From NCBI GenBank assembly GCA_031213475.1, contig JARUPZ010000009.1, positions 11,007,601 through 11,071,600 on the forward strand: a DNA stretch of 64,000 nucleotides. The letters run 5' to 3'. The position numbers and the translations under genes were made by a program. This DNA comes from Nereocystis luetkeana. Lineage: Eukaryota; Sar; Phaeophyceae; Laminariales; Laminariaceae. Positions 4,012 through 62,329 of this stretch are shown one piece after another. The notes under the pieces are model-generated. The model searched no databases. It was not told the origin of the DNA and worked only from the letters and a program-made list of their open reading frames with translations. Every line of letters begins with the position of its first letter. Position 1 is the first letter of the stretch.

Positions 4012-4089
<78 letters not shown>
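4011..4089 (+). repeat. (AAC)n microsatellite
   Basis: About 26 uninterrupted CAA/AAC triplets. The long poly-Cys and poly-Val open frames read from the opposite strand are artefacts of this repeat. Confidence 0.97.
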
Positions 4090-28326: not shown

Positions 28327-28410
28327 CACAGGTATCGAAATCTCCAATACACGATCCGTTGTGGCAGCAGGTATCGTCAGGGCAGTAGTCGTCGTTCGCG
28401 CATCCCGTGT
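28327..28410 (-). CDS. six-cysteine module exon A (most 3')
   Basis: 84 bp, phase 1-1. The module reads C-x5-C-x4-CC-x4-C-x6-C-G with core CCHNGSCIGDFDTCG. It has two extra residues (Asp-Thr side of the acceptor) before the Gly-Cys start, and the shortest gap between Cys2 and the Cys pair. The donor is GTGAGA. The acceptor is less typical than in the other exons (GGCCAG), so the start is slightly less certain. Confidence 0.7.
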
Positions 28411-31400
28411 CTGGCCGTCATCAGGAGCGTGTGGGGAGACGACACACGATGCAGAGTATGACCGCACGACATGTTTAATTGTGCAGAGACATATCAGAGG
28501 TAAAGTGCGAGCATAAGTTGCCATTTACGCATCGGTTGGCGTTAGTTCTTGTCTGGGTATTGGGGGTATTTGTATGGCGTCATGACCATTGAAGCTCGGG
28601 GGACGCAATGCCAGGGGCAGGAAACACACATTTTGGTATGTCAAACTATACGTTCGGGGTCCAATGCGTACTTCTTGAGACTGAGGTGCACTGTATCGGT
28701 GGATCTACATACGTGCAGGAGTTCGAAATATTCGGCCCGTCTACCGTGCATCTTCCTACCACTGCCAACCACTAAAGTCAATTGCGTCGTTACGAAAGTT
28801 CCGTCTATGACCTTACGCGCTTTTACCCAACGTGGTACGGCAGTGGGTACGACGTAGGGTGCGTACCATACGGTCAACGTCATCCACGCAAACAATTGGT
28901 GTGGGTATGTCGATCAGGTCGAACCAAAAAGTTCCACATGTATGTGACGAGAAACATATATAGGAATCTCCTCTTTGGCAATCACCGACGCGTCGTTTGC
29001 TCAATCAAACTTTTCTTAAAATTGGCGCGATCCCCAAATATCCACGTGCAGCCACGGTAGGCCTTCCTAGAAGGACAGCGACCACGTAAACAATACGTAA
29101 ATCGGAGTACGTGCACTAGTACCCATCTAAAGTGATCTGGACATCAAAACTCAAACGACCGTCGAAAATATCCTTGAACGTTTACCGGCTACCTTTAGGC
29201 ACGACGCCCACTGCACGTTGCTCATACGAAGTCTTACACAGAAAACCGGGACGCCCTTGTTGTGCGGTGACCGCGTATGTTCCGCGGTGTCAAGACATTA
29301 CACGAGGCAGCAAAACTCATATATTTGGCGTCGCTAGCCCGTCCATTGGACACTAGTAGTGGTGTGCGAACTTACTCAACGTCCCCGCAATGATTATGTT
29401 CCGCTCCCATTGCCCCCAGCGGCAGATTTCGGCCACCGATGTAACAATATGTCAAACGTTTCAGTGTTCGAATTGCCAGAATTCGTGGAGGCGACAACTC
29501 TCGCCGTCTGTTCGGGACAAATGCCAAGCTGTTACCAACGCCGGAGCTACTCGGAAGCACTTCCTCACCGCAGTCGACGGGGTCATGACCACATGTGCCG
29601 TTCGGACAACAAATAGGATATGTACTATCGTTGCATTTCCGGTCCACCGGGCATCCTGTCGTGAGCGTAGAATAACAAAATGTCACTGTCAAATTGCAGC
29701 GGATGGGAAATTATATTCTATTTTCCCACGGGGTTTAAGAAGGAGCCGACAGTCGCACCTGACGAGACATCAACAATGTACACACATGTGGTCAAGACGA
29801 CTATATGCACAGGGACTAGAGTCTTTCACACTGCGACGGTGTGTGTTCGACGTTGTGGTGTCCTGACGTTCTTACGCAATATGTTTACCAAAGCGAGTCG
29901 GTAGTTACGGAATACACAGACATCAAGATCTTTCAGGAGGACGAATTCGTTAGGATCGAAAACGATGAAACAAAAGTCACAGTGAGATCTAATGAAATCC
30001 GTACACCCCAAACAAATGGCACATCGTTGAAATACGCGTACGTATATACCGGTTTTGTACGTACCGGGTACGTACGATATATGAGTTGAACAGAAACTTG
30101 AGGGAACCAGGGGTCCGCATACCAAACACAAATAAAAATATGGCCGGGAAAAAGACAAAAACCTAAAGCACGTACGGTAATACGCCAGGCACTCTGTGTA
30201 TGTTTGGTGTCGAACACTAAGAGAGGGGGGGAGGGTCGGCGTTTGCAGAGAAAGGAGGGGGGGTACTCGAGATCGTGTATGACCGACGTCGTATGACCAT
30301 GGACCGTCGCAACCCTTCCCTGCCAGGACGAAGAACGTGTGGTTTTGACCGACCAGGAAGATAGATTGCTTGCACCGAAAGCGAGGCACCGTGAGGTGTC
30401 GAGCGAGACGCATAGAGGGTGGTCCGTGTTCTCTGAACAAACAATTGTGAAGCGTAGTTTTTTGTTTTTAATTTTTTTGCCTTCTGACAATGTGCAGGGC
30501 GTTATTCACTCAAAATAAAAGCTGACATAATTCATCGAGTACCAGGTATCACTGACTGCATCGAACCAATTCTCCTTCCCTGCGTGTACTCACTTGAATA
30601 TGCACCCCCCCCATTGACCGAGGTATTTTTCCTACTATGTAGAGTAGTTTTTATACTTATGACAGCTTTAACGAGTAAAGTATATTTGCCGTGTGGCCAC
30701 TTTCACAGACAATTATTGTAGTACAACGTAACTGCCTCGTGGGTGCCTTACGAAAAACACTTCGAGGTGCCATCATTCGCCTTGTCCAGAAAAACTACAC
30801 CCCGCACACAGGGTATAATTGGGCCACCAGCTGTAAGCGACCACTGAACGAAACACACGTTAGTAGTGGTGTGGTTATCAAGCGACGCCACCCGATCCAT
30901 CTATATGAAATATCTAATGGTGGGGGGGGGGCAACCGAACAAGCATGGCCCATCAACAACTACACATGGCGTATAACACCAACCTCGTCCGAGTAGTGAA
31001 ATTGCCACCGAATGAGATCCCCACGCGTCAAACACGGTTGATGTTGACGCGTTCTATGATAGAGGTATGACATTTCCGCTAAAATGGTTTCTTCAGAACG
31101 GGGCACCTTATCCCAACGTCGTCGGAGTGCCACTCTTTTTTCGAAAGATGACGTTTATATGATTGGGCCATGGGCTCATTCATCGGGAAGCAACTGAATT
31201 TTTGCCGAAGTCAGTTGTTGGGTGAGGTATGGAACCCTTCAAGTGAGGGGCCTCAAACCGAATAATAGGGTGATCCTCTATCGTAGAACGCCTACGTTGA
31301 AGGAGTGTATATCGTCCTTTCCTCGACCTGTTCTAGATACGCTGCGAGCGTACCGTATCGTAGGAAATTCGTCCTTGGCATCGAATGAACAGACGTACTA

Positions 31401-34400
31401 CTGTGGATATGGTATTGGGTTCTTTCTGGGGCTTTAAACCCGACGAACTCACGTGTCCCTTAAACAATGCACTTCGATCAAACAGAAGACGAAGTGATAT
31501 ACTTGACCTATCGTAGGTGTTGTTCGAATTACGTTCCGAACATAAAAATGGCTACCTATCAAGGCTAGTTCCTGAGAGTCTTTTTTGGGACCTCATTCGT
31601 CAAACACATCCTGGAAAATGACCACATCCACCGAAACACTCATACTCGACACGTGCTACCGAAGGGGTAAAACAGCATGCCCATGAGGCTCGTCCCGCTC
31701 AGAGGGAGCTCCATATCTCCACGGGAGGGTTGTATCTTGATTGACGAAGGAAATACCTACCAAGGAGATAATACCTGCCCAAAACGACACAATACTCCAA
31801 AACACAACTCACCACACAGCTCGAGGTCATGAGCACACATTCCGTCGGGGCAGCAGATGGGATAGTCATTTGTCGTGCAGTGCTCGTCTTCCTTGCATCC
31901 TGTTCAAAACATATGACGAGAGCATGCAACAAACCCGTGGTGATCATGCCCATGAGGCTCGTCCCGCTCAGAGGGAGCTCCATATCTCGACGGATGGGTT
32001 GTATCTTGATTGACGAAGGAAATACCTACCAAGGAGTTAATACCTGCCCAAAACGACACAATACTCCAAGACACAACTCACCACACAGCTCGAGGTCATG
32101 AGCACACATTCCGTCGGGGCAGCAGATGGGATAGTCATTTGTCGTGCAGTGCTCGTCTTCCTTGCATCCTGTTCAAAACATAGGACGAGAGCATGCAACA
32201 AACCCGTGGTGATGCAGACACATTTGAGATCATCGATTTGTATACACGACACTGGGTATTGAAGAGCAGACGTTTGAAACTGTGAGTGCAGGCTCAAGTG
32301 CGAAGCGACATATCGACAAGGTATATATAGAGCGAGCTCGGTCAAACTACCGTTAGCACGTGTATGTAGCTCTCTCCAATGTTTCGTGCCTTCGATGTTT
32401 GCCCACGTCACGAGCGATGCCACGGTAAGAGCTGCACTATACTGTCTGAGCTGGTCGCATGACCGACTGACTATATCGTCGGAAAGGTTGCATTCGACGA
32501 CGGTTGTCAGCACGACCTGTGTGCTACGCTTGCGCATACACAAGCACGCTAGTTAAAAATTCATACGAGCCCGTATAAAGTAGTCGCTCGCTTCAGGAGC
32601 TCAACCAGTGAACTAAAAACTGAGAAACAACGTGCACACCCCCTGACTGGGGACTATTTCACTACGTCACTTATGAGTTCGTGTACTAACGGCATTATTT
32701 CCACGACATCACATTTCATCAACAGCGCGGGCCAGACGTGATTACAACACGTGTTTCGTTACGATCTTGTGGAAATAATAAACGTTAGAAGAAATTGTTT
32801 TCGTGGGGAACACTCCCGTCGTATCGCGCGCAACCCTCCGTCATCAGAATCAGAATCACGCCGGTTCATGCGTGTGGATCACAGCCAATGGCGCGTGTAG
32901 CGTACCCCCTGTCGTGAACTGAAGGCCACACGCAGTTTGTTATCGTTGTGGGCATACCAATACCCGGTCAAATACGAAATTGTGCGTTGTCAAACGATAA
33001 AACGTGTACAACGCAGTTCTTAGGTCATAGTCATCCAAATCATATTGTCGTCAGATTGCAGTACCTACACGCTTGGTTTTAAGTTTGATTTCCCGGCATC
33101 ATTTACAGATTCATATTCTCCAACGTATTTACACCAACGCTGGCTGCTGGTGACCCGGCCGTCAAGTACGGTCCAGCCAGAAAACGACTCCGTCACCGGT
33201 AACCCGTTGTGCAAGTGGAATCAGTTAGCCGCTCGCGGGAGAGACGTTCTGCACATGTCCTGACCCCCCATGAGCAACGAAAACATGATTTGTTTACTAT
33301 CTTAATCTGGGGACGTCCACAGCCTCCAATTTACGCATGCGGACCTTCTTCTCTGACAATAGCGTCTAGAGCTTACGCAAACGTAGGGGGGAAATAGCGA
33401 CGTGGCCTTGATGGAGTGTCTGGTTTTGGTTTTGCAGCGCTGATGACCAACTTCGGTCAATCTCGAAGTCGCAGTTGCCCGACTTTGAAGGTTGGACCAT
33501 AGGATATGTATGAGGACAAGCAACTACCGCAGAAAACGTACGTGAAGAACTAAGGTCTGCCACGAAACCGCACATATTGACAACGTCAGTCCAGCATTGC
33601 ACCATATACTTCACACTTGCAAAATCAGGTAAACGCCATGGAAAAATATTTCGGACAATCGCAGGTGTCTGTACTAGTTCATTGTCATCGGTTACGACTT
33701 CAGAATCTACTAGCAGCACCGATGAGTGTCCACGCCACCCTTTACCACATAGATCGACGTTATCGGTGCACGTTCCGTCGGGGCAGCAATACGGGTAGTC
33801 TGGATCCAGGCAAGGCCGGCCGTTCGCGCATCCTGTCGTAGACAGTAAATGTTTGTGTGCGAGGAACGTCGGCCGACGATCAACCACACAACATATGTTC
33901 GGCGGAGCCACGGTTAATCACGCCGATCGATATGCAAAAATGCGGTGTGAATCTACCTGTACAGCATACACGCCTGAGTTCGTGATTGGGCGTTTCTTAA
34001 CAACTGTTTGACCGAGATCGATGGACAAGCCTGCAGGGTGAATCTACCTTTGCAGCATACACGCCTTAAGTCGTGATTGGCGTCTCTTAACAACTGTTTG
34101 TCAGAGATGAGTTTGACAAGCGGTCCTTCCTGTGGGTATAGAGCATGCTTCGAATATTCCACGACGGGTCGCATGAAAGAAAACATTGCCAACTTCGAGT
34201 GGTTGCTGATTGTATGTAACTTCACAGTTCGTACAATGATCCGGGGGTCCTCCGGTTAAGGCCATTCAGCTGCCACATCTTAAGCGCTTGGCTTCCGAAC
34301 CAACGTGCTACTGCTTGCATTTAGTTTGTTGTTGAATCCGTCTTGTAAACCTAAACCGTTCGGGTTGTTGGGTTTCTGCGTCTCCCACTATGGTAGACGG

Positions 34401-37400
34401 GTATGCCGGGCAACGACTACCGAAGGCAACACTAAAGTACTGTTCGGGGTTCGTAATTTGTTTGCGTTATACATTGGCTTCTCTCTCTTGGATTGACTAT
34501 CAACCCTCGTGGTTTCCAGTCGAAACGCTACGTCGACGCTGAGTTGGTCAAACGCGTATTGTGCAGGAACGCAATTTTGATTGCAGCTCCCACTGTAGCC
34601 AGACAGCACACAAATATTGGCTTGTAACGTTCACCGATGACAGTGCGCTTTCTACACCACCTACACCAACCAGATGGGTCACCCTCCGTCACAATCCCGG
34701 CGAGCAAAACAACACAGACCCCTAGTGTACCCTGTGGAGATGGTTTTAACGTCATCCGCATCTTCTAACGTCGTTGTTGGGATATTTTCGACAATTACTC
34801 CTGTCGCCTGTGCTGAGCAATTGTCCGTCCTCCACCATACGCACACGCAACACATTTCACCACAGAGGACGATGTCATGGGTACATGCCCTACTCGGGCA
34901 GCAAAACGGTAAGTGAGAATCCGTGCAGTCCTGGTCTGCGTCGCATACTGCAGCAGACGGTCGGCCGGACAAAAACAAAAGACGAATGCCGACCCATAAC
35001 CAAATAAGTCAACTTGAACTCGTGACATAGGAAATAACAACATGCTCCGTGCGCACAGCAGAGTTCGACATAGATAGGTCATCAACTAGTTCTTCTGCAC
35101 TCGTTGGATTCGACGCTGACGATAGGTGGACGTTAACCCGATCGAAACAAGTACATGCCCCGGAATGAACTTTGCAGTCAGTGCCCATGATACGGAAATC
35201 AAGTAGCCCCATCGACCCGTCCAAAGGCTATAATAGGATTTTCGTCTGTCTGTACATCACGTTCAGAATTCGAGATACGGTACGGTATCTACGGCACCTA
35301 TTTATACCGTCAACGGATAGCCGGCGTCGTTGACCGTACTCTGGTAGAATTTGGGATTTAAGGACAGGGGCATACGGGCTGACGAGGCTGGCTAGACACC
35401 TGGTATGCGTAGGTACCCGATGAAGCAGCTTGCAGTCTTTTGTCGCTTGAAGCTTAGTCCATGCAAATTTATTTTGCCGTTCGCGATATCGGTTGATAGG
35501 TGTTCTGATTTTGTATATCCTCAAACAAAGAACCACACCAAGTTGGGAAGCTAGGTAACGAGATGTGCGTGTCGTCTAGGGCATGTGAAATACATCGATC
35601 GATGTCAACTCTGTAAACAAAGGCCTCATTTGTTCGCCGATCATCACGCAGGTGATCGGTTCCATAGGATGTGGACCATGCCCGCGTCACAGTCTGAGAA
35701 CCATTCTTTGTGCCAGTGTATGAACTGACCTATCGCTAACCTAACGATCTTCAGACGTTGACGGTATATACGTCGGAGAAACGACAATTTCTGAACACGT
35801 AGCGTCTGTGAGAATATACAAGCTTGGAGCGTACAAAACTCGGATTCGAGAGATTTCTCGGTATCTTCAAGATACGGGGGGGGAAATGAGAGCGGCGTGA
35901 AAATAGTCTGCCGTTTTCGAAATCCCGTGCTATCTCTAAACCCCCCACATCGGTATGGTTGGAGTAAAATATATACCACCAGGCCAGTCTCGAGTCACAG
36001 GACGACAGTGTGTATCTATATCGTGTGTCACGCCTAAATCGCAGAGATTGATTTTTATCCTGTCATCCAAGCGGTTTTCAGCAATTAGTTGACTAGAATC
36101 GTTTCTGCTGCTTCTGCCAAGTACACCGGAGCCACTTCTCACCACATAAGCTTAGCTCATCAACACAGATTCCGTTCGGGCAGCATACCGTTCCGTCAGG
36201 GCAATGGTTCAAGTCCCCGCATCCTGTGCACGACGTTGAATGCGAGCATGTTGTGAATGTCAGTCGATGCAATCAAGAGCACGCAAGATATGCACGGGGT
36301 AGGCGTTAAAACAAATCAGTACTCTTCTTTCTGAACGGCACACAACGGCCACGAGCTTCGGTTCACAAAGAAGTGCAATCTAAATTGTATGTCAATCGTC
36401 AAAAGGTAGAGTTTGTTCATAAGACTGACTACGTTAGTAGGTCCAGTTGCACTATCGGCTACCCGCCGTTTTGTTGCCTTGGTTTCGTTTCGTGTTTCAG
36501 TTTCGGCGAAAGCTCTATCATCAAACACGGCTTACAACCGGTCTCGCTAAAAGTGCCGAGCCACTAGTGCCACTGGCCTACGACCGTCAGTAAACAAACG
36601 AGTAGCAACCCCACCAATCTCACCAGACAAGTATCAGACAGTTTGAGCTTACACGAAAGACGCCGATCACAATGTAGTTTTCTCTAACTCAAAATTCAAC
36701 GTTCCTGCATCTAATCAATGCCACATGCAGAGGTTTGTGGAACTACAGAAAACTTGCAAACTTTTGAATAATATCGGCTTGGTTCTGAATAAAACGATAC
36801 CGGCATCGCATGGCGCCTGATTGTATACGTATCCGCGCGTGATTATATCTTCGACCGCCGTCGGTTGGTGCTCGAACCACGGTTGGAACCTAAACCACGC
36901 TTCCGTTAATAATGGCAATGCCGTTTGTGTAGAATTTTCTCTGGCCTCATGGGAGGGACGTTCTGCCAATAATCACCGACCAGGAGCAACAACACCAGAT
37001 AAACCATATCCACGTAACCCCTTAAGTGGTGGTTACGGTATGAATATGGATTGGTTTCTTCGGGTTCCATCACGTGCTCTGGAGCTGTCCACTCGGAAGG
37101 TGAGCAGAAGCAACATATAGTTCGACTTTCCTCATTTTACAAATTCTTTTAACGTACCGAACAAAGAATCTAACGCGTAAAGTACCAAACATATCAAGCG
37201 GAAACACCACTACAGTGTGCACGTTATTATGTGTATCCAGTGTCGATATTGCTGGCGTCGAGGAGTTACAGGATTCAAAGTCGAAACGCCTCACTGCGGC
37301 CAAACGATAATTTTTGTTCGTCAGAATTAAACGAGGAAGTATTTGTTACCGTCGACGTGAAGTACCGCAGAGTTGCTCCAAAACGAATAAAGGCGGTTAA

Positions 37401-40400: not shown

Positions 40401-43400
40401 TCATGCTATACATTGATAGTTCGGGCGATATATCTGGCTTGACGTCGTTCGGGCAGCTTCCGTTCAGGCAGAAGAATATATACTCGGAGCATACTAAGTC
40501 TTCTTCGCATTCCTGTGTTGACGTAAATTGCGCGATACATGTGACCGCAATGCATCAGGCAATAAAATGATACGTCGGGTGATCGTTCTCGTTGAACGTT
40601 TGGACGACAAGGTGTGGCGATCCTAACGGAAGTGATGTGACCAATATCCGCGGACGTTCGCTGAATAGACTTGTAGCGATATGCACCATGCCTGCGTGTG
40701 GTAGTCGCGACTACTGCACTGAGGTATATCAATGCCAATCGCATCGTTATTTTCCCCACGATTTCCATTTTCTTCGACTGCGATGGTACCCTACTTTCTT
40801 TACTCGAGTATGTTTTTGTAGCCATATCCGTTTTAAGTTTGCGATATTGATTAGTTCTGCGGTCTGGATAGCAGGCACAGTCTAGAACTATTTTTTGTTC
40901 TTATTGTTTTATTTACCGCACAGTTGACTTTTGCAAACCCGTACGTTCACGTCAACGTTGCGTGCTGTACACGACCAAGCACTACAACGCCACAACGTGG
41001 TCATTCCCACAGGCATGGTCGAAATGTCGGCTGGTCCACACAGTTTTGTGCTTCCTCGGAGTATAACCCTAGGGTGTGGTGTATCACACCAACGACCCCG
41101 TTCCGGGAGAAATATCTAAACGTCTTTGTTTGGGCAGCCCACTATTTATACGAACCTGACCCCTATGTAAACTTAACTTTTGATCAACTCTAGATAACAC
41201 CGAAACGCGTTTTGGGGAAGAATAGAAACATATCGAACACTTGATGAAAAAACACATCTCATGGCGTAGGCCAGTAGCGAAAATGAGTAGCAAAACGAGG
41301 CAACGTTCGGCCATTTATAGGTTTTAAAGTCTAATGATTGATGAATACAAACAGGAGAATGATATAGCTTTAGGGTGGAACCTGTCAACCACGTTGCTCG
41401 TTAACGGTGACATTTTTTTAATATGTTGTCGTCGTCTACAAATAATTTTGGCGACCTATCATACTGGCCCGTTGCCGAAAGTTTCCCACGCGTGAGGAAG
41501 TGGACCACTGGACTCCATAGCCGATGCTCCAAATATCCCTGTGGGTCTTCCCCGAGTTAACTGTACACTCTCCAGGGTTACAAGATGGTATTGGTTTTAA
41601 CTCACCCGATTATATCCGGCGTTTTCGAGAGGGCTGCAGTTGAGGATACCCAACTATACGACGAGGAAATATACTATGCCTACCCTTGAAAACGTAGGCT
41701 GGATGAGCGTCAACCTGGCGGGAACGTATATAGCACGCTCAGTGAACAATATATTGGAATAGGTATGAATGGAACGTAGTGAATAACCCACGTGTCAATT
41801 CAGAACAACGGGCCAATCGGCAAGCGAAGCACCGCCTTCACTCGAAATGATCTTCGACCAAAACGAGCCACCCTTATGGTAGCACACGATTCAACAGCCA
41901 CCCTGTTCCTTCGACATTCACTGTAGTAGTGGGTTCAATTTTTTCTTTCGCACACAAGTTGACGTCGGGGAGACACGTTCCATCGTGGCAGCCTTCTGTG
42001 CCGTCATGGTAGTAGGTATCATCCGCACACCCCGTGGCTGGTGGTATGGGCGAGGAGTAATAAAACGTCAAACGACGCGAACACACACCATATATGCTCA
42101 TCTGCATTGTCGATCCGAACGGAAAGGAAAACACTGAGAGTGCACTATTTTCATCGTGAACCACGTGCTCCGGACAAAACGTTTTACCCGAACAATATAT
42201 GGCTCTTTTGAGTAGTTGCTCCGTACTATGACATATTTGGTCGGTAAATGTGTTGGTATTCTGCGGGTTAAGAACATCCAATTACAACATCACAATGCAT
42301 TGGATTCCGAAGAACATACGTGCTGCTCATAGTTCAGAGGGATGTTCTCACGTCGTTTAACACGAACCCTTTGATCTGGTAGTACCCTTAATGTACCATT
42401 GGAATATAGGATGGTCTGCGGCAGGTATCAAGAAATCAACAGGGAACACGGGCATAGTGCGTTGATTTGTCTCTTCCACATTCGCTGGTCTCTTCCTGGA
42501 TTGGCCAAACCAACCGTCGTCAATCACTACTGATACTGTAATTCGAAACACAACTGGTCAAAGAAGGAACGCGAAAGAAAGCATTCAAGGATGAAATTCC
42601 CACTTCAGCCCAACTGCGAAATAAATGTTGGCTCAACTTACACCGACGAACGTGTGACCTCTGTTACTTCACCAGCCACATAGTACGGTTTTCATATCGT
42701 GGGGGCATGTTATTTCGGGCCATCCGCATTGAACGCCGTTCGAACGACTCAGTCGACGCCTCCTGCTGTCGGTACCGACCGAACACACGTCGGCCACCGA
42801 CTACCCACGGAACGCTGCTCATCACGGAGAAACACGTCGTGAGCACATTCTCCGGTCGGCAAGCAAAAAGTAAACATAGAACCGATGCAGTGCTGGTATT
42901 CGCCGCATACCACGGTAGACGGTGAGTGGACCCAAGTATCAAATATATGCGAACTTGGAACAACATGGCACGACTGGAATTCGTGTCACCGGAAAAATAT
43001 TTAGACTCCGTTCGTTCGTGTTCAATTTTTTGTGTTGCACTCGTTGTAATAGAATTTGACGGCATGTAAAAATCAACCCGTGCAAAGCATAGGAATTAGC
43101 CTGGCGCCCAGTTTATCGCCACGACATACGTATTTTGGGCCTTGAGTACAATCATCGATCGGTCTATAACATTTTGTCCCTCGACTCTTCACACGTCATG
43201 CACAAGGATGGGATAACACCACGGTACCCTCAATATCCCTCCGTTTGACTTCAATAAAGGCATTTTTGTTGTGGTTTTCATGACATAAGTCGTGGGCGTT
43301 GGCGAGCATTCAGTTCACACGGGCACGGCCGCTAAAATAATGGAACTCCAAAGTACATGTACGGCTGCAGCTTGAGGCAAAAGAAAACAGGCCGTCCATG

Positions 43401-46400
43401 CGATTAATAGGGGCTGCATGTGTATACGTATACAAGTCAAGAGCCGCTCCAAGTTCAGATGCTACCGCTATGGCAGGCAAGGGTCGTCTACACCACATAG
43501 AACTACTCCGTCGATGCCAACACGGTAATAATATGAACGGTAACGACTTGCGCCGGACGTTCTGAAGGTGGCCGGTTGAACAAGAGGCGAGCCGTGCACA
43601 TGGCTCGGTTAGAAAAATAATGGTTTGGTACCGTTTACCTTTGACAGGGTGCGAATCTGAGGAAAATCAGGCGTGGATGATAATTGTTCTGCAAGCGGTT
43701 TGTTGCTGAACATGTGGTGTGCACACAGCTTGGATTCTAGAGGTTTCGGTGCTTATAACCAGCGTGCAAAAAATGAAGGCCGCGTGAAAACAGCTTACCG
43801 TTCTAAGAAAGACCATGTCCCCACGAAAGCCGCGACTTCTGTATAGTTGAAGTATACCGGTAGACAATGAAGACACTATCGCAGCGCGGGTCGACAGTGT
43901 GTGTGTATACAACCCGTGCGTCACGACCATGTCGGGAAAATGGATTGTACCTTATCGTCAATGCGTCTGTGACAATCAATCGCATAGCAGCTTTTCCTTA
44001 GCTATGCGTTGGGGTAGACCTATAGCCAATGAAGGCAATCTCGAAGTATGGGGTACATAAGCCGCGCGTCATGGCTATATCGCGCGAAGGATTTTTACCT
44101 GATCATCAACGTGTCTGTGGGGATCGATCGTCGAGCAGTGTTTCAGCTACTATTGACAAAATTCAACTTTGTAACTACTTCTTAGCGCACATGTATGAGC
44201 CACCAATACAGTTCGTTTCCATCTGGCCAGCCTGCCGTTCCACCAGGGGAAAAAATCATGTTCCCGCATTTCGTGCTCCACGTTAAACGTAACAATGCTG
44301 TGAATGTCAGCCGTTGCATTATATATGACGCGATACGCACGTGTCAGTTACGGTAACATTTATGTATAAATATATTCATTTACACAACATAATACCTCCA
44401 CACATGGGCTGACTAAATGCAAAAACAATCAATTGTGAACACATCCTATACTAAAAGTGACGAAATGGTTGTCTACTCAGTACACTCGTCTCGCGGCTGA
44501 GGGCGAGTGACACGGAGAGGCTACAGCACCCGCCGTTTTGGCGCCTTGGTTTCGTTCAGTGGTTCGGTTTGGGGAAGAACTGCATCATAAACCACGGCTT
44601 ACCGCCGGTTCGTCCTCGGGTCACTGAGTTAATCCTGGAACTAGCTTACGACCGGCAGCAAGCGAAGGGCTAGTAGCCGTGCCGTCGTCTCTCTACGAGT
44701 ATGAGGGCAGTGTGAGTAAACTTTAACCCTGATTAAATCAATGTATGTCGGGATAATACCGAAATGAAACGCTCCCGAATATCATCTCCGTCGCACTGCA
44801 GCAAAATTTGGAATTTCTTCAGCGTATGCACAAGATTTGGAACAACTAGCTAACGCCGTCCTATGGCGCCGCCGCCCGTATGTATCGGTTCACGAACTCA
44901 TTTTCGACCTTTTCGTCATTGGTCCACGAACCACCGTCCGAGCCGGAAACATGTGTTCGTGATTGACAATGTCGGGGAGATGTCCTCTCTGTCCTCGAAA
45001 TAGGGGCCTTTTACAGTTATTCGCCGTTGACAAGTATGACCACCAAGTAAAACTTTTGCAGGTTGACTCCAGCAGTGTGTGGTACGGTATATGTATATCT
45101 GTGGATTGGATTGTTTGGGTTCCATGCTCTCGGACTGTTCACTGGTAACTTTGATATATGTCTTACGGCTGTGGATGGTTTTGTTCTACACCAAATGCGC
45201 ACAATGCTCTGATCAAACCGAGTGGGCACTCAACTGGTCTGGCCAAGATTTTCGTTTCCGGTATCGATATCGTTCGCGTAGAGGAGCTACAGAGATCGAG
45301 ATTGGGACGCCTCACAGCGGCCATACGGCAAATTTCATTATCCAAAGTTGAACTGGGAACCCTCGTCTTGATACGAGTGCAAAGTACTGCAGGGTTTCTG
45401 CGAGAGGGTTGGAGGGGGGTTAGATAGTCAAGACTAGCTCTCCACGCCGGTTGAGGTTCGCTGTGTGCTTCGCGTCAATGGTTCGACGCGATGTGCCGTC
45501 CGTACATTGCTTTACACGTCAACCGCTGCTGTACGTACTTCGAACCTGGCATTAATACCGTGCTTATCATCACAGAGCGTACTAAATGGGATTCTTACCA
45601 CACTCCTGGGGATTGTCGGTGCAGATTCCACTCGGGCAGCAATAGGGATAGTTGGGATCAGCGCAAGGCTGGCCCTTTTCGCACCCTGCCGTAGACAAGG
45701 CGCGAGAGCGTTCGGAGAACTTCAGTCGACGAAGACCACGGGAATTCTGGAGGTGGAAAGACAAAACCTACACAGTTTGATGAAAATTCGATATTCATCG
45801 CCCATCGAAGGGAGGCTCTGTTAACGAGTCCTCGTATTGTTAACGCTTACGTCCACAACGTGAAATGTCTCTCTCGACCGAAGTTTGCCTACTATTAAAT
45901 ACAACTTCCTATATAGCCCATACGCCGACCGTTCCCGCAACGCTAGTGCATTTTACCTCAGAACGCGGTTCCCGTTTCGAACAGTACATAAATTATTGTA
46001 TACCGCTTCATCTTATGAGCTCCCTTCCGTCGACAGGCGCGTGAAAAGCGTATAATTACCACATGCAAGAGGCTTCATTTCCCGAGAAGCACCACCCTAG
46101 TGAGACTATTCCGCTTGGCTCTGCTTTCGTCGCGTTTCATGAAAAAAAGACGTGTTTTTTCTTCTAACTGCCGTCGCCCTCATCGCAGAACCAAACCGTC
46201 GCTTGAAAACATTTATTTGCGAACATACATGCGGTCATATCTGAGGTTAGTGTTAGCTTCCATTGTTGGTGCCTCTCGGTTATTTATGTACATTGAACAT
46301 CAAGTCGCGGCTCGACGTTGATGCCGCACCACGAACTTCCATTGGCCCAAAGCGAGCGCGCAAAAATACATGAAAACGTGCTTCCTCCACCGGAGGCAAA

Positions 46401-49400
46401 CCGTCAACATGTGTTGGCTTTATTCGCACATACATATAATAATCTAAATACTGCAAACTACGCCGACGACATGATGTTTTTCAGGATGATCAGGGTAGAG
46501 TAAGAACCGCAAAATCTACTGTTGTTGGTACAAGTTGATCATGTGTGCGTCGATGGTGTCACGCGTTTCGAACGTCGTACACGTGTCCATGTATTGCCAG
46601 AGACAAACTATGTACACTATGTTGACCCCTTGATAGGCTATTATTGTCATCCACCCCTACTTTTGAATTTGTTTTCTATTGATCCTTTATCAGAACATAA
46701 AGGGATGGCAACTATTTCCGTATCTAGCAATACCTCTGATATATCTATATTTCCAGTCTTCCTTTTTTGCTATTTTTGTTCTCGCGATGCGTATATCCAA
46801 CTTAATACTGGCCAGACCAATTATATATCTGAGTAGAGAGGGACTTGCCCTCTGGGCGAAAGCACGGTAGTGATATAAAGTGTAGCCCCTGTGGCTTGTC
46901 TTCTGGTCGACAACGCTTGCAGTCGCTACTGAGAAAACTGCGCTGTTGTTGTCCACCATAAATAACGCCGTTTCTCACCACAGAGGACAAGGTCATGCGC
47001 GCACCCCCCGCTTGGACAGCAGAATGTATAGGATGGATCAGTGCAGTGCTCGTCTTCGTCGCATTCTGTCGCAGACGGCAAGCAAGGGAAAGAAACAGAT
47101 AAAAGCAGCGTACGCGGAGACACAAGCCTTGTCTTTAAATATACATACATGAGGATATTGCTAGCGAACGCTGGTCGGTAGATACATTATTTTATGCGTT
47201 TGCGACCCTTCATCGGTAACGTCATTCTTATCAAAAGTAACAACAGGTAAACGTCGACCCTATAAACTCCAAAAAATGTCCTGGACCGAATCTGTTTGTC
47301 CCCCCGGATGTGATAAGGGGTTGGATTCCAACATCGACCGGTCTGTAGCCTTTCGCCCCGTTGACATTATCATATCAGTCAACGAAGTAGAATATAGGCA
47401 CGGATTACACAACAACACCCGTATATATATATATATGGCTTCAGCTAATCGCGGGCTTAATATCTAGGCAAGCGTTGCTAGATAGATGCTGAACTATTTT
47501 TTGGCGCTGGCGGGTAGGCTGAATCAAGGTAGACGTCGACTGTTTGTGCACAGGATAGCTGGTTTCATAATTCGCCTTGAATATGACCCATTCGACTGTG
47601 GTTGACGTGCACCCTTTATCACCCTTGGATGCTAGGTGCCGTATGTGACGGCAAAGGCGCGCCACGATAGACTTTCACCCAAGTCTTTATGAGGTTTCTG
47701 TGTCCCGCGAAGGTAAAACGCTAAATCCAACGGGGACACAAAATTTAAAAACGACTGGTTATTGGTTCCGTGGAACACGGACCATAGGAATATCATAGAT
47801 ATCTCAACAAACAAACCGTGGTGGTGTAACTCCTTCACCCGATAAGGACGCCGTGGTGGCTGAGAACGTTGTAGTATTCAAAAGGGATGCCTCTATCGCA
47901 GATCGCCGCGGTAAAAATCTCCTCAAGAGACGATCCTCCCGAACACTACGTCCTTCTTCCACCGAATCATGTGTCTCCTAGGGTACTCGAATATTGGGGT
48001 CCTCCGATATATATATAGCAGTATGTTCGGCAAAATACCCCGCGTGGGCATTGTACGTAGACAGCGATGACCAACAGATGCCAGAAAATCAGGCTTGGTC
48101 GGTGCCTACCATCTGAAAACATTTAGAATGTCATGCCTTTATGGTTCCATCTTGTTGAGCCACGGACGGAACACCGGAAGAGGTTATAGTACGGAGGGTT
48201 AGTCCGGCGGATTTTTTTATTTTTGTCATGCTTGTGGTGTGTGTGAGCGTTTACAAGCTTCAAGTGTATATATAATATCTGGAACTTGAGCGTTATTGGC
48301 CTTCCGGAAGGTAGATCCAATGTGGAAAAAATTGGAAACAGGGTCAAAGCTATTTCAAGTAGTACCAAGACCCCTGTTATCTGTGGAGGTACATCTTGCG
48401 TAAGGCTACCGATGCTAGGCTTAACGGACGCCGCTTTCCATGGGTCATCTCCCACCTTGTGTACCAAAAGTCCGGTTGACAGTATTATACTCTACACAAA
48501 CAACACGACTCGGCCACTATAAATGATTGTACCCTATTTATTGTCCCAGCCCCCGATGCTACCTTCTTCACCATGGTGTCCGGAAAACCCTACTCACCAC
48601 ACAAGTCTAGCTCGTTAACGCAGCTTCCGTTCGGGCAGCAGACGGTCTCCTCGGGGCATTGTACATCATCTTCGCACCCCCCTGATAATAACGCGAAACC
48701 ACGTCAGACATGTATGTCCACGGAGCAAATCAAACCATAAAGTGGTTGGTTGGGCATCATTTCTCTGACCCTTGAGCTTCCAGCATCAATATGTGACTAT
48801 CCCATTAAAAGTGCCTCAGCTAGTCCCCGCTTACGTTCGCCTGCTGCTGGGCTTGCCGCGATATGTATCAAGCGTGCATGTTGTACTCGCAGCTACTTGA
48901 CTGTAATACAGCAACGTCACACGCAGCGACTTTTCCCAACCTTTCCTGCGCGTCACTATTCAAATGTTTTTGGTACCATACTACTTCGGACTACAGTAGT
49001 GGCGTTTTACGTAGCCATATCCTTTTCCGAAAATTACTGTGGTTGTCTACAGGTTCGACAGCAGGCACAATTCCCAATGTTTACTACACAGTGCTCTTTC
49101 GCAGTAGCTTACGTCGCCGCCTTCGCTGCACATTGCTGACGTCAAAACACTAAATTTTTATACATGACTATTCACGCAGGCACGGTTTAGATGTCGTTAT
49201 GTCTCCCTGTTGTGTGATTTCGAAACAATCCAAAACACTGACGTGTGGCGTTGCACTCTAGCGCGTTCACTCACAATACCCGATTGATTTTTGGCCCTCC
49301 TATGGATATTCGGTCGGGCAACATATATTGTTGCAAAACTCGACACTCCTTTTCAGCGGAAATCAATGTGTCGCAAGTATACCTGAACAGTTGCTCATAC

Positions 49401-50987
49401 TTGGCGTATACAGGTAGGCCTTTCATCGAATCTCGAGCCCGAAAGACTATAGATATGGCGTCAGTGTGGGTTGGTCATATGTTGATAAGTGGTTATATAC
49501 ATGTATGTATGTATTCTACCGTACATGATATTCTATACTTTATAATCTCGTTCGTGCAGTAAGTAGTAAGAAAATAACTCGTGTATAGTAACTGGCTAGC
49601 TGCGTTGAAAATGATCCAAAGGTCGCCAAGTACGGTAGGATGGCGTATATTAAGGTAGACGTGAATGAATGAAAAATGTGTTAAGGTCACTTGTGGGCAT
49701 CACTGAGAGAACGGAAAAGTAACACATGTAGTTGTGATGCCATCCTGAAGCAGAGATATCTCATTGCTCCCAAACGATGTACACTTCACAGCGACATAGT
49801 CACATTGCACGAAGTATGACAAAATCTAACGGCAAAAACGAAAGACGTGTAACACCGTTTTTAGACAATGCCTTCTGATCGCATACTTGGAAACAAAAAC
49901 AAATAATAGAACGTGACAAGCAACATGGCAGCACGGAAATATTTAGAACCCGTAGAAAGCAACATCCCACGCGCTCATTTCTATGCCAGGGACATGCCGA
50001 TATCGACACCAGTGTTGTAATTCATATGTCACAGTGGATATAAACCGTGTGTTAGACCGGTGTCGCCTTCAATCCCGGTGATACCAAACTGGGGTAGAAC
50101 CTTGGGTTCTTGTCCTCGGCAGGTTACACCTACCTGAGAGACATCACAACATCTGAGTAGCACCACTACAACAGCAATCGCGCACTACGCACGATAATTG
50201 GCGATTGCGGAACAATGCGGTAGTAGACTGTACCCTTTGAGTTCCGGAAGGACGACCAGTGTAGGTGCTTTATTCTACCTATGCTATCTGTAGACGCGGT
50301 GTTTTAAACATGTTCATGGTACGTCATTTCGACCGAGCGTTTACGTACCATTTGGGTCAGAAAGGGAAACACTATAAACCCAGGAAGATACACCCATTCA
50401 AACCAAGTAGACATCTATCTGGTAAGGCTTGATGATCGAACTTCATTTTACGGCATAAATTGTCTCGCATTTTCGTGATTCCATCGCCAATAATCCCTAT
50501 AACTCGGTCAACATCGGGTTTTAAAGCCAGGAGGTTGGTTGTCGTTCACGAGTATGACCTATTATACACATCTCCTAGGTAGGAGAGAGGTTTTGCGGAG
50601 GAATGATGGATTTGATCCGTTGTTGTGAAAGCGTTCTTCACGCAGGAATCTGCGCTTTCTCTACAGTACATAAAGTAGAAACCTTGACTGCCTCGTCATG
50701 GTGGTTGGGTCGATGAAGACATCGTTGAAAGAGACGCGAGTAATTCCAACAACCGGTCAAAGATGGGAATGACCGAACCAGGTTTACAGCACAGGTTCAT
50801 CTGACGTTTTCTAACAAGCAGTCCATGATGACTGCACATCCGTGAAGCATACTCCAGCAACCCCGTGTCTGCGACGACCATCGCAAGGTCTAGGGTATCC
50901 TCTCACCACAAAGCTCAACTGCTGGGGCGCAAGTTCCGTCTGGGCAGCAGAGCGTTTCCAGAGGGCAGTGTTTGTCCTTCTTGCAAG
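28327..50987 (-). CDS. large multi-exon gene (partial): array of six-cysteine modules, one per exon
   Basis: Fourteen intact exons of 81, 84 or 87 bp on the minus strand each encode one module C-x5-C-x(4,5,7)-CC-x4-C-x6-C-G. Each is preceded by AG (usually ACAG or GCAG) and followed by GT (GTGAGN, GTAAGN, GTGAAN or GTAAAG). All are phase 1 at both ends, so any subset can be spliced in frame. Introns are about 0.2-5.2 kb. Paired exons (H/N, I/O, G/M) differ mainly at synonymous positions. The spacing resembles the inhibitor-cystine-knot framework and the N-terminal half of granulins; the fold is inferred, not shown. A secreted or extracellular location is likely because of the disulfide pattern, but I see no signal peptide or membrane exon. 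The terminal exons are not identified. The array could also be two genes, or a set of alternatively spliced exons. Confidence 0.75.
29569..29655 (-). CDS. six-cysteine module exon B
   Basis: 87 bp, phase 1-1. Spacing x5-x7-x4-x6; core YPICCPNGTCGHDPVDCG. Acceptor CGACAG, donor GTGAGG. The split codon gives Gly before the first Cys. Confidence 0.85.
30250..30425 (-). repeat. interspersed repeat, copy Z
   Basis: Minus-strand match to 19029-19168 and 60935-61080 (ACCTCACGG.GC, GCAAGCAAT, CTGGTCGGT.AAAAC, ATGGTCATACGAC). It falls inside a long minus-strand open frame, which I take to be incidental. Confidence 0.55.
30463..30643 (-). mobile_element. short poly(A)-tailed retroposon, copy 1
   Basis: On the minus strand it ends CACATTGTCAGAAGGC plus an A-rich tail (the T-run at 30463-30478). 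A direct repeat GTAGTTTTT flanks both sides (30454 and 30644), as expected for LINE-assisted insertion. Its body matches 56370-56519. Confidence 0.7.
31050..31290. mobile_element. about 240-bp MITE, copy b
   Basis: CGTTCTATGATAGAGG at 31050 inverted at 31275-31290 (CCTCTATCGTAGAACG). Same family and length as 21043-21284, inserted in an intron of the array gene. Confidence 0.7.
31813..31899 (-). CDS. six-cysteine module exon C1
   Basis: 87 bp, phase 1-1; core YPICCPDGMCAHDLELCG. Acceptor AACAG, donor GTGAGT. Lies in the left copy of a 269-bp tandem duplication and encodes the same protein as exon C2. Confidence 0.85.
32082..32168 (-). CDS. six-cysteine module exon C2
   Basis: 87 bp, phase 1-1, same coding sequence as C1 (core YPICCPDGMCAHDLELCG), same acceptor and donor. 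It is the neighbouring product of the 269-bp duplication. Confidence 0.85.
33746..33832 (-). CDS. six-cysteine module exon D (type G)
   Basis: 87 bp, phase 1-1; CANGRPCLDPDYPYCC followed by PDGTCTDNVDLCG. Acceptor CGACAG, donor GTAAAG. By sequence it belongs with exons G and M. It lies directly downstream of exon E, which resembles H and N, repeating the H-then-G order. Confidence 0.85.
33944..34126. repeat. two-copy 91-bp tandem repeat within an intron
   Basis: Two units starting GTGAATCTACCT, diverged by several substitutions and indels. Both contain CAGCATACACGCCT and TCTTAACAACTGTTTG. Confidence 0.8.
34861..34947 (-). CDS. six-cysteine module exon E (type H)
   Basis: 87 bp, phase 1-1; CDADQDCTDSHLPFCC followed by PSRACTHDIVLCG. 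The split codon gives Val rather than Gly before Cys1. Acceptor GCTGCAG, donor GTGAAA. Confidence 0.85.
36143..36223 (-). CDS. six-cysteine module exon F
   Basis: 81 bp, phase 1-1; C-x5-C-x5-CC-x4-C-x6-C-G, with CPDGTVCCPNGIC in the centre. The C-P-D-G-x-x-CC stretch is the one most like the start of granulin domains. Acceptor GCACAG, donor GTGAGA. A decayed counterpart lies at about 44187-44270. Confidence 0.83.
37584..37670 (-). CDS. six-cysteine module exon G
   Basis: 87 bp, phase 1-1; CEDGQPCADPEYPYCC followed by PSGTCTDNLDNCG. Acceptor CGACAG, donor GTAAGG. Against its duplicate M, eight codons differ synonymously and about six change the residue, all outside the cysteines, the Pro-x-Gly and the terminal Gly. 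Confidence 0.88.
38950..39036 (-). CDS. six-cysteine module exon H
   Basis: 87 bp, phase 1-1; CDEDDHCTDPEYTFCC followed by PSGGCAHDLVLCG. The split codon gives Glu before Cys1. Acceptor CGACAG, donor GTGAAG. Against exon N only two residues differ while eight codons differ silently, strong evidence of purifying selection. Confidence 0.9.
39440..39560 (-). other. conserved segment between module exons (possible second exon type), copy 1
   Basis: On the minus strand one frame reads TWAIFRAN, then YPVHRE and later AST. The duplicate at 47500-47610 reads EWVIFKAN, YPVHKQ, TST in the same frame, with several third-position differences. A weaker echo (QFIHWHKEWFS) lies at about 35695-35745. Splice boundaries are not clear, so this could be a conserved intronic stretch. 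Confidence 0.35.
40274..40357 (-). CDS. six-cysteine module exon I
   Basis: 84 bp, phase 1-1; CEEDVQCPEQTVCC followed by PNGSCVNELDLCG, with one extra residue (Glu) before Cys1. Acceptor CAACAG, donor GTGAGT. Counterpart of exon O: five silent and three replacement codon differences. Confidence 0.88.
40428..40512 (-). pseudogene. decayed module copy J (partial duplicate of exon I)
   Basis: Still recognisable through CEEDLVC at its start and NGSC in the middle. The upstream flank (CGCGATACATGTG...) repeats that of exon I, so J arose by a local tandem duplication of exon I with its intron. The cysteine framework and the splice context are no longer complete. Confidence 0.65.
41951..42037 (-). 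pseudogene. decayed module copy K (type G)
   Basis: 87 bp by alignment, keeping ATGCADD at the start and DGTCLPDVNLC near the end, but part of the cysteine framework is lost and the splice context is weakened. It is paired with L exactly as G-type exons are paired with H-type exons elsewhere. Confidence 0.65.
42823..42909 (-). pseudogene. decayed module copy L (type H)
   Basis: Length 87 bp preserved; the ECAHDV segment and the start VCGEYQHC identify it as H-type. The cysteine framework is incomplete and the splice context looks lost. Confidence 0.6.
44187..44270 (-). pseudogene. decayed module copy F'
   Basis: Positional counterpart of exon F in the distal block. The upstream flank (GTGAATGTCAG) matches that of F, and residual sequence aligns, but most of the cysteine framework has gone. 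This shows F-type exons were lost in one block and kept in the other. Confidence 0.55.
45599..45685 (-). CDS. six-cysteine module exon M (type G)
   Basis: 87 bp, phase 1-1; CEKGQPCADPNYPYCC followed by PSGICTDNPQECG. Acceptor CGGCAG, donor GTAAGA. Duplicate of exon G. Confidence 0.88.
46979..47065 (-). CDS. six-cysteine module exon N (type H)
   Basis: 87 bp, phase 1-1; CDEDEHCTDPSYTFCC followed by PSGGCAHDLVLCG. Acceptor CGACAG, donor GTGAGA. Duplicate of exon H, nearly identical in protein. Confidence 0.9.
47500..47610 (-). other. conserved segment between module exons, copy 2
   Basis: Counterpart of 39440-39560, frame EWVIFKAN...YPVHKQSTST. It sits between exons O and N just as copy 1 sits between I and H. 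Confidence 0.35.
48286..48522 (+). other. unassigned plus-strand frame inside an intron
   Basis: A 78-codon frame with even codon use, reading VIGLPEGRSNVEKIGNRV near its start, a phrase loosely like LINE ORF1 proteins. There is no ATG at its head and no partner domain nearby. It may be a LINE fragment or chance. Confidence 0.2.
48598..48681 (-). CDS. six-cysteine module exon O (type I)
   Basis: 84 bp, phase 1-1; CEDDVQCPEETVCC followed by PNGSCVNELDLCG, one extra residue before Cys1. Acceptor ATCAG, donor GTGAGT. Duplicate of exon I. Confidence 0.88.
50907..50987 (-). CDS. six-cysteine module exon P (most 5' intact module)
   Basis: 81 bp, phase 1-1; CKKDKHCPLETLCC followed by PDGTCAPAVELCG, with the shorter x5 gap shared with F. 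The split codon gives Ala. Acceptor ACAG on the other side of a CGACAG-like context (GCGACAG), donor GTGAGA. Confidence 0.85.
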
Positions 50988-51949
50988 CTGTCGCAGAATG
51001 CGTGGAGTGCAAATGAGAGCAGATGACACACGTGAAAATGTGCAAACTATCTACAGGAGGTGTAAACGTATAATAGCTGCCTGGAATGTACTGTTCGTTC
51101 AGACCTCGTAAAAGGCAAACACCCAAGATACATTTCCAATCAAAGACTGCGAGAACACTGTACATACACACCACGCTCCGGCGGTTTTGGGTAGTTCATA
51201 CTCCGTACTGGAAGAATGGATGGGTTTTTATCCACTCTGGTCCTACCATTCGAAAACAAGGTGTCGGTCGAGTCACGATGTATGTTCACCATAGTCAAAT
51301 AGACAGCACATGTCACCCACCTTGCTGCTCGTCGTCCGTGCTTTTGAAATAAGAAACGTTTGCAGCAGGTGCATCACCTTCCCTCAGAGCGGCATTCGTC
51401 ACTCAAAACTATATACGAGGTAGGTATGGTGTTGGGTGTCGAGAAGGACGTAGTTCGGTGATGACCATGACTGCACATCGTTGGCACGATGTTTCGAATA
51501 TATCCCCTGGACGATGACAATGGCGAACGTTTTTGGCGCGTCCAGATGTGCAATAAGACTTACTCGCGACCTTATTCGCAGATTGTGTTGATACTATGAG
51601 ACGTGTGTCTTTGACTGACACACGCCTACAAGCCTCGCGTTCTGCACAAGTACGATATTGCAATCAGATACAGTGTAGTGTTATGCAATGCGGGCTATCT
51701 GCTGCTGGTTTTTGTTTCGATCAGATGCAGCGAAGGAACGCCTACCGAAGCACCCGAATCATTTAATGTCTTACTACCGCAGAGAGAAGGGAAACAGATG
51801 GTTGTACGGTATCTTAAATCGGGAGCAATACGACTCCCCTAAAACCTGGCGTGTTTTATAGTTTATTTTGTTTATGCGCAATGGCTGTGCACCATACCAC
51901 GGAGCCGCGTTCAACGCTGTGCTTACTATAGGGGCAGACCTGTTCTCAT

Positions 51950-52022
51950 TTGCACACTCGAATACATTGGCCTCCCATGATACAGCAGCAGAATGTGTCT
52001 TCGACTACGTACTCATGTTATT
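51950..52022 (-). pseudogene. decayed module copy Q
   Basis: Minus strand retains EDTFCC and GGQC in the order of an H-type module, upstream of exon P. The framework is incomplete and the exon edges are unclear. Confidence 0.4.
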
Positions 52023-54678: not shown

Positions 54679-54709
54679 ATATATATATATATATTTATAT
54701 GTATATATA

Positions 54710-54748
<39 letters not shown>
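54679..54748. repeat. (AT)n microsatellite
   Basis: Two AT runs separated by TTTATATGTATATATACCA. Confidence 0.97.
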
Positions 54749-54753
<5 letters not shown>

Positions 54754-55458: not shown

Positions 55459-55527
55459 ATACGCAAATTGGTGGATAGAGCTCCAATGCGCAACATCCTG
55501 TATTGCAGTGATCGTTGACCTCGCACT
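55459..55527 (-). CDS. candidate upstream cysteine-rich exon R
   Basis: A 69-bp stretch reading CEVNDHCNTGCCALELYPP and then ICV: C-x5-C-x3-CC-x8-C. An AG precedes it (TTTTGAAG) and a good donor follows (GTGAGT). Read this way it is phase 1 at both ends, as in the main array, so it could splice into it directly. It differs from the other modules in loop lengths and lacks the sixth cysteine, and it is a single instance, so it may be a variant module, part of another domain or coincidence. Confidence 0.4.
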
Positions 55528-55529
55528 CT

Positions 55530-56358: not shown

Positions 56359-56369
56359 GTGTTAGTATT

Positions 56370-56519: not shown

Positions 56520-56534
56520 TGTTAGTATTGAAGG

Positions 56535-62327: not shown

Positions 62328-62329
62328 TG

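What the first reader, a model, noticed from the sequence alone, without database searches (positions are those of the whole stretch)
28327..50987. Array of single-module exons, all phase 1-1, encoding six-cysteine beads
Seen directly: 14 exons of 81, 84 or 87 bp, each exactly one C-x5-C-x(4,5,7)-CC-x4-C-x6-C-G module, each with AG/GT edges and the same split-codon phase. Known: symmetric phase-1 exons are the substrate of exon shuffling and tandem exon amplification in extracellular proteins. Inference: one gene making a modular cysteine-rich protein, perhaps with alternative splicing to vary the set or number of modules. I do not recognise a described family with this one-exon-one-module layout, although the framework is like cystine-knot or half-granulin modules.
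Basis: partly seen in the sequence, partly recalled or inferred. Interest (0 to 1): 0.92.

Follow-up and report, generated by a model that had tools for sequence, protein, structure and literature searches.

The report
One-exon-one-bead cysteine-rich secreted protein gene
A stretch of DNA from an unidentified eukaryote holds what looks like one gene for a secreted chain of very similar six-cysteine beads, each bead written in its own interchangeable exon, and the DNA still shows how the chain grew by repeated doubling and then lost some beads.

Summary
Fourteen exons on the minus strand (50987 to 28327) each encode one C-x5-C-x(4,5,7)-CC-x4-C-x6-C-G module with AG/GT edges and phase 1-1. The pattern occurs 14 times on minus, never on plus, never in 60 shuffles.
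Additions: (1) a likely upstream signal-peptide exon (59150-59075) and another cysteine-rich phase 1-1 exon X (52309-52220); (2) modules follow a repeated order B-C-D, from a ~4 kb unit that doubled to ~8 kb and then ~16 kb, plus a recent 269-bp doubling of module E; (3) four decayed copies; (4) among copies of one age, intact exons are 76-90% identical, two measured decayed exons 65-68%, aligned introns 55%; dN is below dS in the close pairs. The modules are strongly acidic (net -72 over 399 residues) and joined by 1-3 residues without Lys or Arg.
No Pfam, NCBIfam, PHROG or PDB match is significant. In the papers I read in part, multi-knottin genes of mussels (mCRP-I) and of the spider Hc1a family keep all knots in one exon. 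Fold, function, transcript, 3' end and species remain unproven; UniProt and eukaryote genomes could not be searched.

The parts
59075..59150 (-). Candidate first coding exon: signal peptide MQFAKYAGRVGAALFLVIAAHAQDR, phase-1 donor GTAAGT
   Evidence: such an exon in 3.5% of 200 shuffles of the 9 kb, by criteria set after it was seen; a rival start at 57252 exists
52220..52309 (-). Exon X, 90 nt, phase 1-1, five cysteines (C-x5-C-x-C-x4-C-x4-C), not of the module family
   Evidence: 0 of 200 shuffles, criteria set after it was seen; its acceptor does not resemble the module acceptors (score -1.9); no Pfam or PDB match
50907..50987 (-). Module A, 81 nt
48598..48681 (-). Module B1, 84 nt
46979..47065 (-). 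Module C1, 87 nt
45599..45685 (-). Module D1, 87 nt
44177..44341 (-). Decayed B-type exon Br with flank (partner of B3): indels, lost AG and GT, one cysteine left in the best frame
42806..42923 (-). Decayed C-type exon Cr with flank (partner of C3): lost acceptor AG and donor GT, CC became CL, last Cys became Arg
41945..41992 (-). Decayed fragment Dr (partner of D3), 3' half only, donor GT lost
   Evidence: score 40 against maximum 32 in 100 shuffles
40445..40572 (-). Decayed extra B-type exon Br2 just upstream of B2; acceptor AG kept, CC became CL, last Cys and donor not recognisable
40274..40357 (-). Module B2, 84 nt
38950..39036 (-). Module C2, 87 nt
37584..37670 (-). Module D2, 87 nt
36143..36223 (-). 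Module B3, 81 nt
34861..34947 (-). Module C3, 87 nt
33746..33832 (-). Module D3, 87 nt
32082..32168 (-). Module E1, 87 nt, in one copy of a 269-bp tandem duplication (97.8% identical)
31813..31899 (-). Module E2, 87 nt, coding core identical to E1; intron between them 182 nt
29569..29655 (-). Module F, 87 nt
28327..28410 (-). Module G, 84 nt, divergent (CCHNG); read past its donor the frame stays open for 18 codons after the last Cys to a TAA, so it may be internal or terminal

Best explanation
One eukaryotic gene (minus strand, at least 50987 to 28327, probably from 59150) makes a secreted protein: signal peptide, a short cysteine-rich lead segment (X), then up to 14 knottin-sized six-cysteine beads, one per exon, joined by 1-3 residues. 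Because all junctions in the model are phase 1, any bead exon can be duplicated, lost or skipped without changing the frame. The array grew by unequal exchange: a B-C-D unit of ~4 kb doubled, the ~8 kb product doubled again, E doubled recently, and four copies decayed into pseudo-exons (exon birth and death inside one gene). Shown: sequence, phases, order, duplication pattern, purifying selection. Inferred: that the beads are spliced into one chain; that each forms a compact three-disulfide hairpin fold; and that the very acidic chain works outside the cell as a multivalent binding or structural string (extracellular matrix, adhesion, cation or ligand binding) rather than as a precursor cut into free peptides.
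For: 14 of 14 modules on one strand in one phase, 0 in 60 shuffles. Signal-peptide exon and exon X upstream, same strand and phase. Order B-C-D three times; tree ((B1,B2),B3), ((C1,C2),C3), ((D1,D2),D3) with bootstraps 95, 81, 77 for the inner pairs and 75, 63, 97 for the three groups. Eight collinear anchors offset 7962-8324 nt; five sub-unit pairs offset 3838-4413. dN/dS: B1/B2 0.03/0.45, C1/C2 0.05/0.89, D1/D2 0.17/1.18. Same-age control: intact exons 76-90%, decayed exons Br and Cr 65-68%, introns 55% of aligned bases. Net charge -72, 84 Cys in 399 residues; linkers without Lys or Arg.
Against: No transcript, no species, no orthologue. Terminal exon not identified. AlphaFold2 models only moderate (pLDDT 74.7 and 75.3, pTM 0.34 and 0.32) with no significant PDB match. 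Exons of 81-87 nt make single dN/dS values noisy; several pairs are saturated (dS undefined). The signal-peptide exon arises in 3.5% of shuffles by criteria set after it was seen, and that scan's length limit (115 nt) excluded a rival at 57252 with higher hydrophobicity and a GTGAG donor after 121 nt. Exon X was not returned by the splice-matrix scan because its acceptor differs. Function is inferred from composition alone.
Confidence: 0.6

Rival explanations
1. Exon reservoir with alternative splicing: different transcripts carry different bead sets (as reported for LRR exons in brown-algal ROCO genes, or for Dscam), giving variable recognition molecules.
For: All exons symmetric; three intact variants of each of B, C and D; published precedent for one-repeat-one-exon genes with alternative splicing (PMC11378527, passages and section 11).
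Against: No RNA data. Nearest copies show dN below dS, unlike the four positively selected LRR sites in the ROCO paper. Complementary intron elements of the Dscam kind were not tested.
Confidence: 0.2
2. Several small neighbouring genes, each secreting one or a few beads (toxin or defence peptide cluster), instead of one long gene.
For: Six-cysteine spacing like knottin peptides; a weak Pfam conotoxin I-superfamily hit (E 0.0026 for four joined modules, below the family cut-off). A loose scan lists nine ATG starts with a hydrophobic stretch on minus between 20 and 51 kb; one pair (34761/34755) has a GTGAA donor like those of C2 and C3.
Against: Beads are bounded by splice sites rather than by their own start and stop. 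The other seven candidates have non-consensus donors. Beads are acidic and linkers hold no dibasic sites (one KK lies inside module A). The strict signal-peptide scan was run only on 50987-60000, so this rival is not closed.
Confidence: 0.1
3. The bead is a derived member of a known module: WAP, granulin half, or hevein-like / knottin carbohydrate-binding peptide.
For: Weak profile hits: WAP in 3 of 13 members, best E 0.0017; top but insignificant fold hit for the B model is the peptide Ac-AMP2 (E 3.9; that it is hevein-like is recalled); CCPxGxC resembles granulin CCPxGxxC (recalled); granulin N-type exons also carry six cysteines.
Against: WAP below its cut-off and needs eight cysteines (recalled); granulin spacing differs (recalled); neither granulin nor chitin-binding Pfam models appear up to E 10 (HMMER filters drop most weak matches); no aromatic residue in the CCPxGxC stretch.
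Confidence: 0.25
4. The array is a non-functional relic of repeated duplication.
For: Four copies are decayed.
Against: All 14 others keep frame, six Cys and both splice sites, and same-age intact exons are far more conserved than introns.
Confidence: 0.04

Closest known systems
Mussel mCRP-I (multi-array knottin-like cysteine-rich peptides, Mytilus; PMC10138031, passages read)
   Same: Several C-C-CC-C-C knottin-like arrays in tandem in one secreted precursor, varying in number
   Different: All arrays lie in the fourth and final exon; the authors call exon duplication and exon shuffling not plausible there. Here one exon per array with introns of 0.2-5.2 kb.
Bivalent spider ICK toxins (Hc1a family, DkTx; PMC13172734, passages read)
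   Same: Two, in one putative case three, ICK domains in one chain
   Different: Hc1a-type genes carry the whole mature peptide in exon 3 and became bivalent by intra-exon duplication; for DkTx the authors had no genome of the species and leave the mechanism open. Here 14 domains, separate exons, acidic, near-zero linkers.
Brown-algal ROCO LRR exon arrays (PMC11378527, passages and section 11 read; Zambounis 2012 not held, seen only as a citation)
   Same: One repeat per equal-length exon of one phase; tandem amplification inside a gene
   Different: 72-bp phase-2 LRR exons in GTPases, with alternative splicing and positive selection reported; here phase-1 cysteine modules with purifying selection, and no evidence that the species is a brown alga
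Progranulin (PMC4527844, passages read)
   Same: Secreted chain of cysteine-rich modules evolving by exon duplication; N-type exons each carry six cysteines
   Different: [quoted passage not shown] different cysteine spacing (recalled)

Membership tests
Inhibitor cystine knot / knottin | Six cysteines C-C-CC-C-C with loops of about 5, 4-7, 0, 4, 6 | tested here: met
   (general loop ranges recalled; the mussel CRP-I frame quoted is similar, with a last loop of 3-5 against 6 here)
Inhibitor cystine knot / knottin | Disulfides I-IV, II-V, III-VI forming a knot | not testable with these tools
   No disulfide data; no model coordinates available to measure
Inhibitor cystine knot / knottin | Fold similarity to solved knottins | tested here: inconclusive
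   Short paired strands plus one-turn helix, pLDDT about 75, no PDB match with E <= 0.001
Granulin / half-granulin | N-half cysteine frame C-C-CC-CC | tested here: not met
   Frame against the granulin frame (recalled); no granulin hit in Pfam scans
Granulin / half-granulin | Full module built from an N and a C exon | tested here: not met
   One exon per module here; granulin layout. An N-type exon alone would be comparable in cysteine number.
WAP four-disulfide core | Eight cysteines (recalled) and Pfam PF00095 above cut-off | tested here: not met
   Six cysteines; 18.9 bits against cut-off 20.8; 3 of 13 members match weakly
Conotoxin I-superfamily (Pfam Toxin_19) | Score above Pfam cut-off | tested here: not met
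   18.3 bits against 23.2 for four joined modules; 1 of 13 single members
Exon-shuffled modular extracellular protein | Symmetric phase 1-1 exons coinciding with modules | tested here: met
Exon-shuffled modular extracellular protein | Secretion signal encoded upstream in phase 1 | tested here: inconclusive
   Good candidate at 59150-59075 by simple rules only; rival start at 57252
Alternatively spliced exon-array receptor (ROCO / Dscam type) | Transcripts with different exon sets | not testable with these tools
   No RNA data for the locus

The most novel reading that the evidence does not exclude
A one-exon-one-knottin gene whose bead set is remodelled by serial intragenic doubling, pseudo-exon formation and optional exon inclusion, so that individuals or transcripts carry different strings of acidic disulfide beads: an exon-shuffled extracellular binding repertoire built on a mini-protein fold instead of LRR or Ig modules.
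Probability: 0.2. Interest if true: 0.8.

Novelty: new variant of a known kind. Interest (0 to 1): 0.55.

Why it matters
The multi-knottin genes described in the papers I could read in part (mussel mCRP-I, spider Hc1a) hold their knots in a single exon, and their authors argue against exon shuffling. Here a bead of only about 27-30 residues is its own symmetric exon, and the locus still carries the intermediate steps (two nested doublings, a fresh doubling, four dying exons). That gives a same-age internal control for how modular proteins gain and lose domains, and a chain of disulfide beads whose length could be read directly in individuals.

Tried and rejected
Species: no genome is held for the window. 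A copia-gag-like frame at 7545-7120 gave no Pfam or viral-contig match. CpG is not depleted (1.11), which fits many groups. I suspected a brown alga (copia-like fragment, GC 48%, long introns), but this is recall and guesswork and is not claimed. Neighbouring genes: a simple coding-potential script listed seven segments, none convincing, but it did not list any of the 14 modules either, so it is blind to short exons; of 68 stop-free stretches of 110 aa or more ten were sent to Pfam, without a real hit. So neighbours are not excluded. C-terminal exon: hydrophobic segments over the whole window are as common on plus (22) as on minus (18) and none could be tied to the gene. Homologues: none confirmed in prokaryote genomes, viral contigs or phages (12 and 11 pattern matches failed tblastn). 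Family libraries: nothing above cut-off in Pfam; NCBIfam 1 of 13 members at E 0.28; PHROGs 2 of 13 at best E 0.2. PDB by sequence: best E 2.2, chance-like. Rfam at gathering score and ARAGORN: none; a bacterial promoter scan of 27-28 kb is not relevant to a eukaryote. Papers: the listings of ten searches, in part cut to 15 or 20 rows, showed no one-exon-one-knottin gene; six module strings such as CCPNGTC occur in no held paper. Passages of PMC12879055, PMC7463432 and PMC9865768 were also seen: the first and last had no bearing; the second describes the six-cysteine mini-granulin fold.
Full report
Observation. Scanning all six frames for C-x5-C-x(3-9)-CC-x(2-6)-C-x(4-9)-C gives 14 hits, all on the minus strand between 50985 and 28328. 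Each lies between an AG and a GT so that two bases (five in B1 and B2, eight in G) precede the first Cys codon and one base follows the last; all lengths are multiples of three. In 60 dinucleotide shuffles of the window neither the pattern nor the framed pattern occurs.

Gene model. A family-independent scan for cysteine-rich phase 1-1 exons returns a form of every module (A and F with longer, D3 with a shorter alternative acceptor), exon X at 52309-52220, a poor candidate at 11272, and nothing on the plus strand. A splice-matrix scan puts the module exons first (20.5 to 35.7) but does not return X, whose acceptor differs from the modules' (-1.9); other candidates reach 17.2 on minus outside the modules and 18.1 on plus. 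X-like exons occur in 0 of 200 shuffles of the 9 kb upstream region. At 59150-59075 an ATG opens a signal-peptide-like stretch that ends in phase 1 at GTAAGT; such exons occur in 3.5% of the same shuffles. Both sets of criteria were fixed after X and the signal peptide had been seen. A rival start at 57252 (more hydrophobic, GTGAG donor after 121 nt) lies outside the length limit of that test. So the first exons are likely, not certain. Introns run from 182 to 6764 nt as printed, whose signal-peptide boundary is one base too far (59074 instead of 59075). The 3' end is open: module G has a donor-like GTGAGA, but reading past it reaches TAA 18 codons after its last Cys.

History of the array. 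In gene order the modules are A, B1 C1 D1, B2 C2 D2, B3 C3 D3, E1 E2, F, G. A nucleotide tree of the 14 cores groups B with B, C with C and D with D, each as ((1,2),3), with bootstraps 95, 81 and 77 for the inner pairs and 75, 63 and 97 for the groups; deeper nodes are 13 to 73. Self-comparison shows further copies: Br, Cr and Br2 and a fragment Dr (score 40 against a maximum of 32 in 100 shuffles). B1/B2, C1/C2, D1/D2, two intron stretches, Br/B3, Cr/C3 and Dr/D3 are offset by 8324, 8029, 8015, 8021, 8067, 8045, 7962 and 8205 nt; B2/B3, C2/C3, D2/D3, B1/Br and C1/Cr by 4134, 4089, 3838, 4413 and 4156. The simplest reading is B-C-D doubled, then the six-exon product doubled again, followed by decay of three exons in the first half; Br2 is an extra local copy. 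E1 and E2 lie in a 269-bp tandem duplication, 97.8% identical.

Selection. Between the two halves of the ~8 kb duplication, which on this reading are of one age, intact exons keep 90.5, 86.2 and 75.9% identity, the decayed exons Br and Cr 65.4 and 67.8%, and 5873 aligned other bases 55.0% (the fragment Dr was counted among the introns there, and much intron alignment may be no better than chance, with gaps counted, gives Br/B3 62% and Cr/C3 68%). Nei-Gojobori estimates for the close pairs are B1/B2 dN 0.03, dS 0.45; C1/C2 0.05, 0.89; D1/D2 0.17, 1.18. More distant pairs are near saturation in dS, some undefined; pairs of unequal length were not compared. The sequences are short, so the direction, not the value, is the result. 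Br has indels and has lost both splice dinucleotides; Cr has lost AG and GT and two cysteines; Br2 keeps its AG but has lost its CC pair, and its last Cys and donor are not recognisable; Dr has lost its donor GT.

What the protein is like. The 14 modules with linkers make 399 residues with 84 cysteines, 82 Asp+Glu and 10 Lys+Arg, net -72. Invariant are the six cysteines and the Gly after the last; P and G of CCPxG are nearly so (13 distinct modules). Linkers are G, E, A, V, GG, GE or DTG, without Lys or Arg, so a precursor cut at basic sites into free peptides is unlikely. This charge is unlike the usual basic antimicrobial or channel-blocking knottins (recalled). AlphaFold2 on two bead types with 13-row alignments gives short paired strands around CCPxGxC and one helical turn, mean pLDDT 74.7 and 75.3, with no PDB fold match at E <= 0.001; the best, insignificant hits are a metallothionein (E 5.1) and the peptide Ac-AMP2 (E 3.9). 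The fold is therefore open: knottin, a hairpin like the mini-granulin fold (passages of PMC7463432), or a ladder running across beads.

Known families. Pfam's best hits are WAP (E 0.0017, 3 of 13 members) and the conotoxin I-superfamily (E 0.0026 for four joined modules), both under their cut-offs; NCBIfam and PHROGs give nothing useful; PDB sequences nothing below E 2.2. Tandem knottins in mussels lie in one exon, and exon shuffling is judged not plausible there; spider Hc1a bivalent toxins arose inside exon 3. One-repeat-one-exon arrays are reported for LRRs in brown-algal ROCO genes, with alternative splicing and positive selection. Granulin modules are typically split over two exons, though an N-type exon alone carries six cysteines. 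So the principle (symmetric module exons) is old; the combination with a knottin-size bead and a preserved doubling history is what I did not see in the listings of ten searches of an open-access library that lacks most subscription journals.

Limits. Species, transcript, homologues and function are not known. Eukaryote genomes and UniProt could not be searched. Neighbouring genes were looked for only weakly. The functional statement (extracellular multivalent acidic bead string) rests on the predicted signal peptide, composition and linker length only.

Noticed in passing
window 7120-7545 (-): Open frame that resembles a copia-type gag by recall; no Pfam hit and no viral-contig relative.
   Followed up: partly
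window 19169-19471: Three copies of a 101-bp unit, 98-99% alike; just to its left, 18937-19172 matches 60848-61082 (75%).
   Followed up: no
window 10938-14859: Cluster of direct and inverted repeats rich in ACCGCACCGAACC-type motifs and 37-40 bp tandem units, with short CCCTAA runs near 14185.
   Followed up: partly
window 2011-2365 and 61998-62327: Dispersed repeat pair, 83% identical over 357 columns, possibly a transposable element; no tRNA and no Rfam match at gathering score, two chance-like sub-threshold Rfam matches in 61500-63500.
   Followed up: partly
window 30461-30622 and 56368-56518: Repeat of about 160 bp, 81% identical, once in the intron before module F and once in the presumed first intron.
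   Followed up: no
window 33925-34121: Two-copy 91-bp tandem in the intron just upstream of module D3.
   Followed up: no
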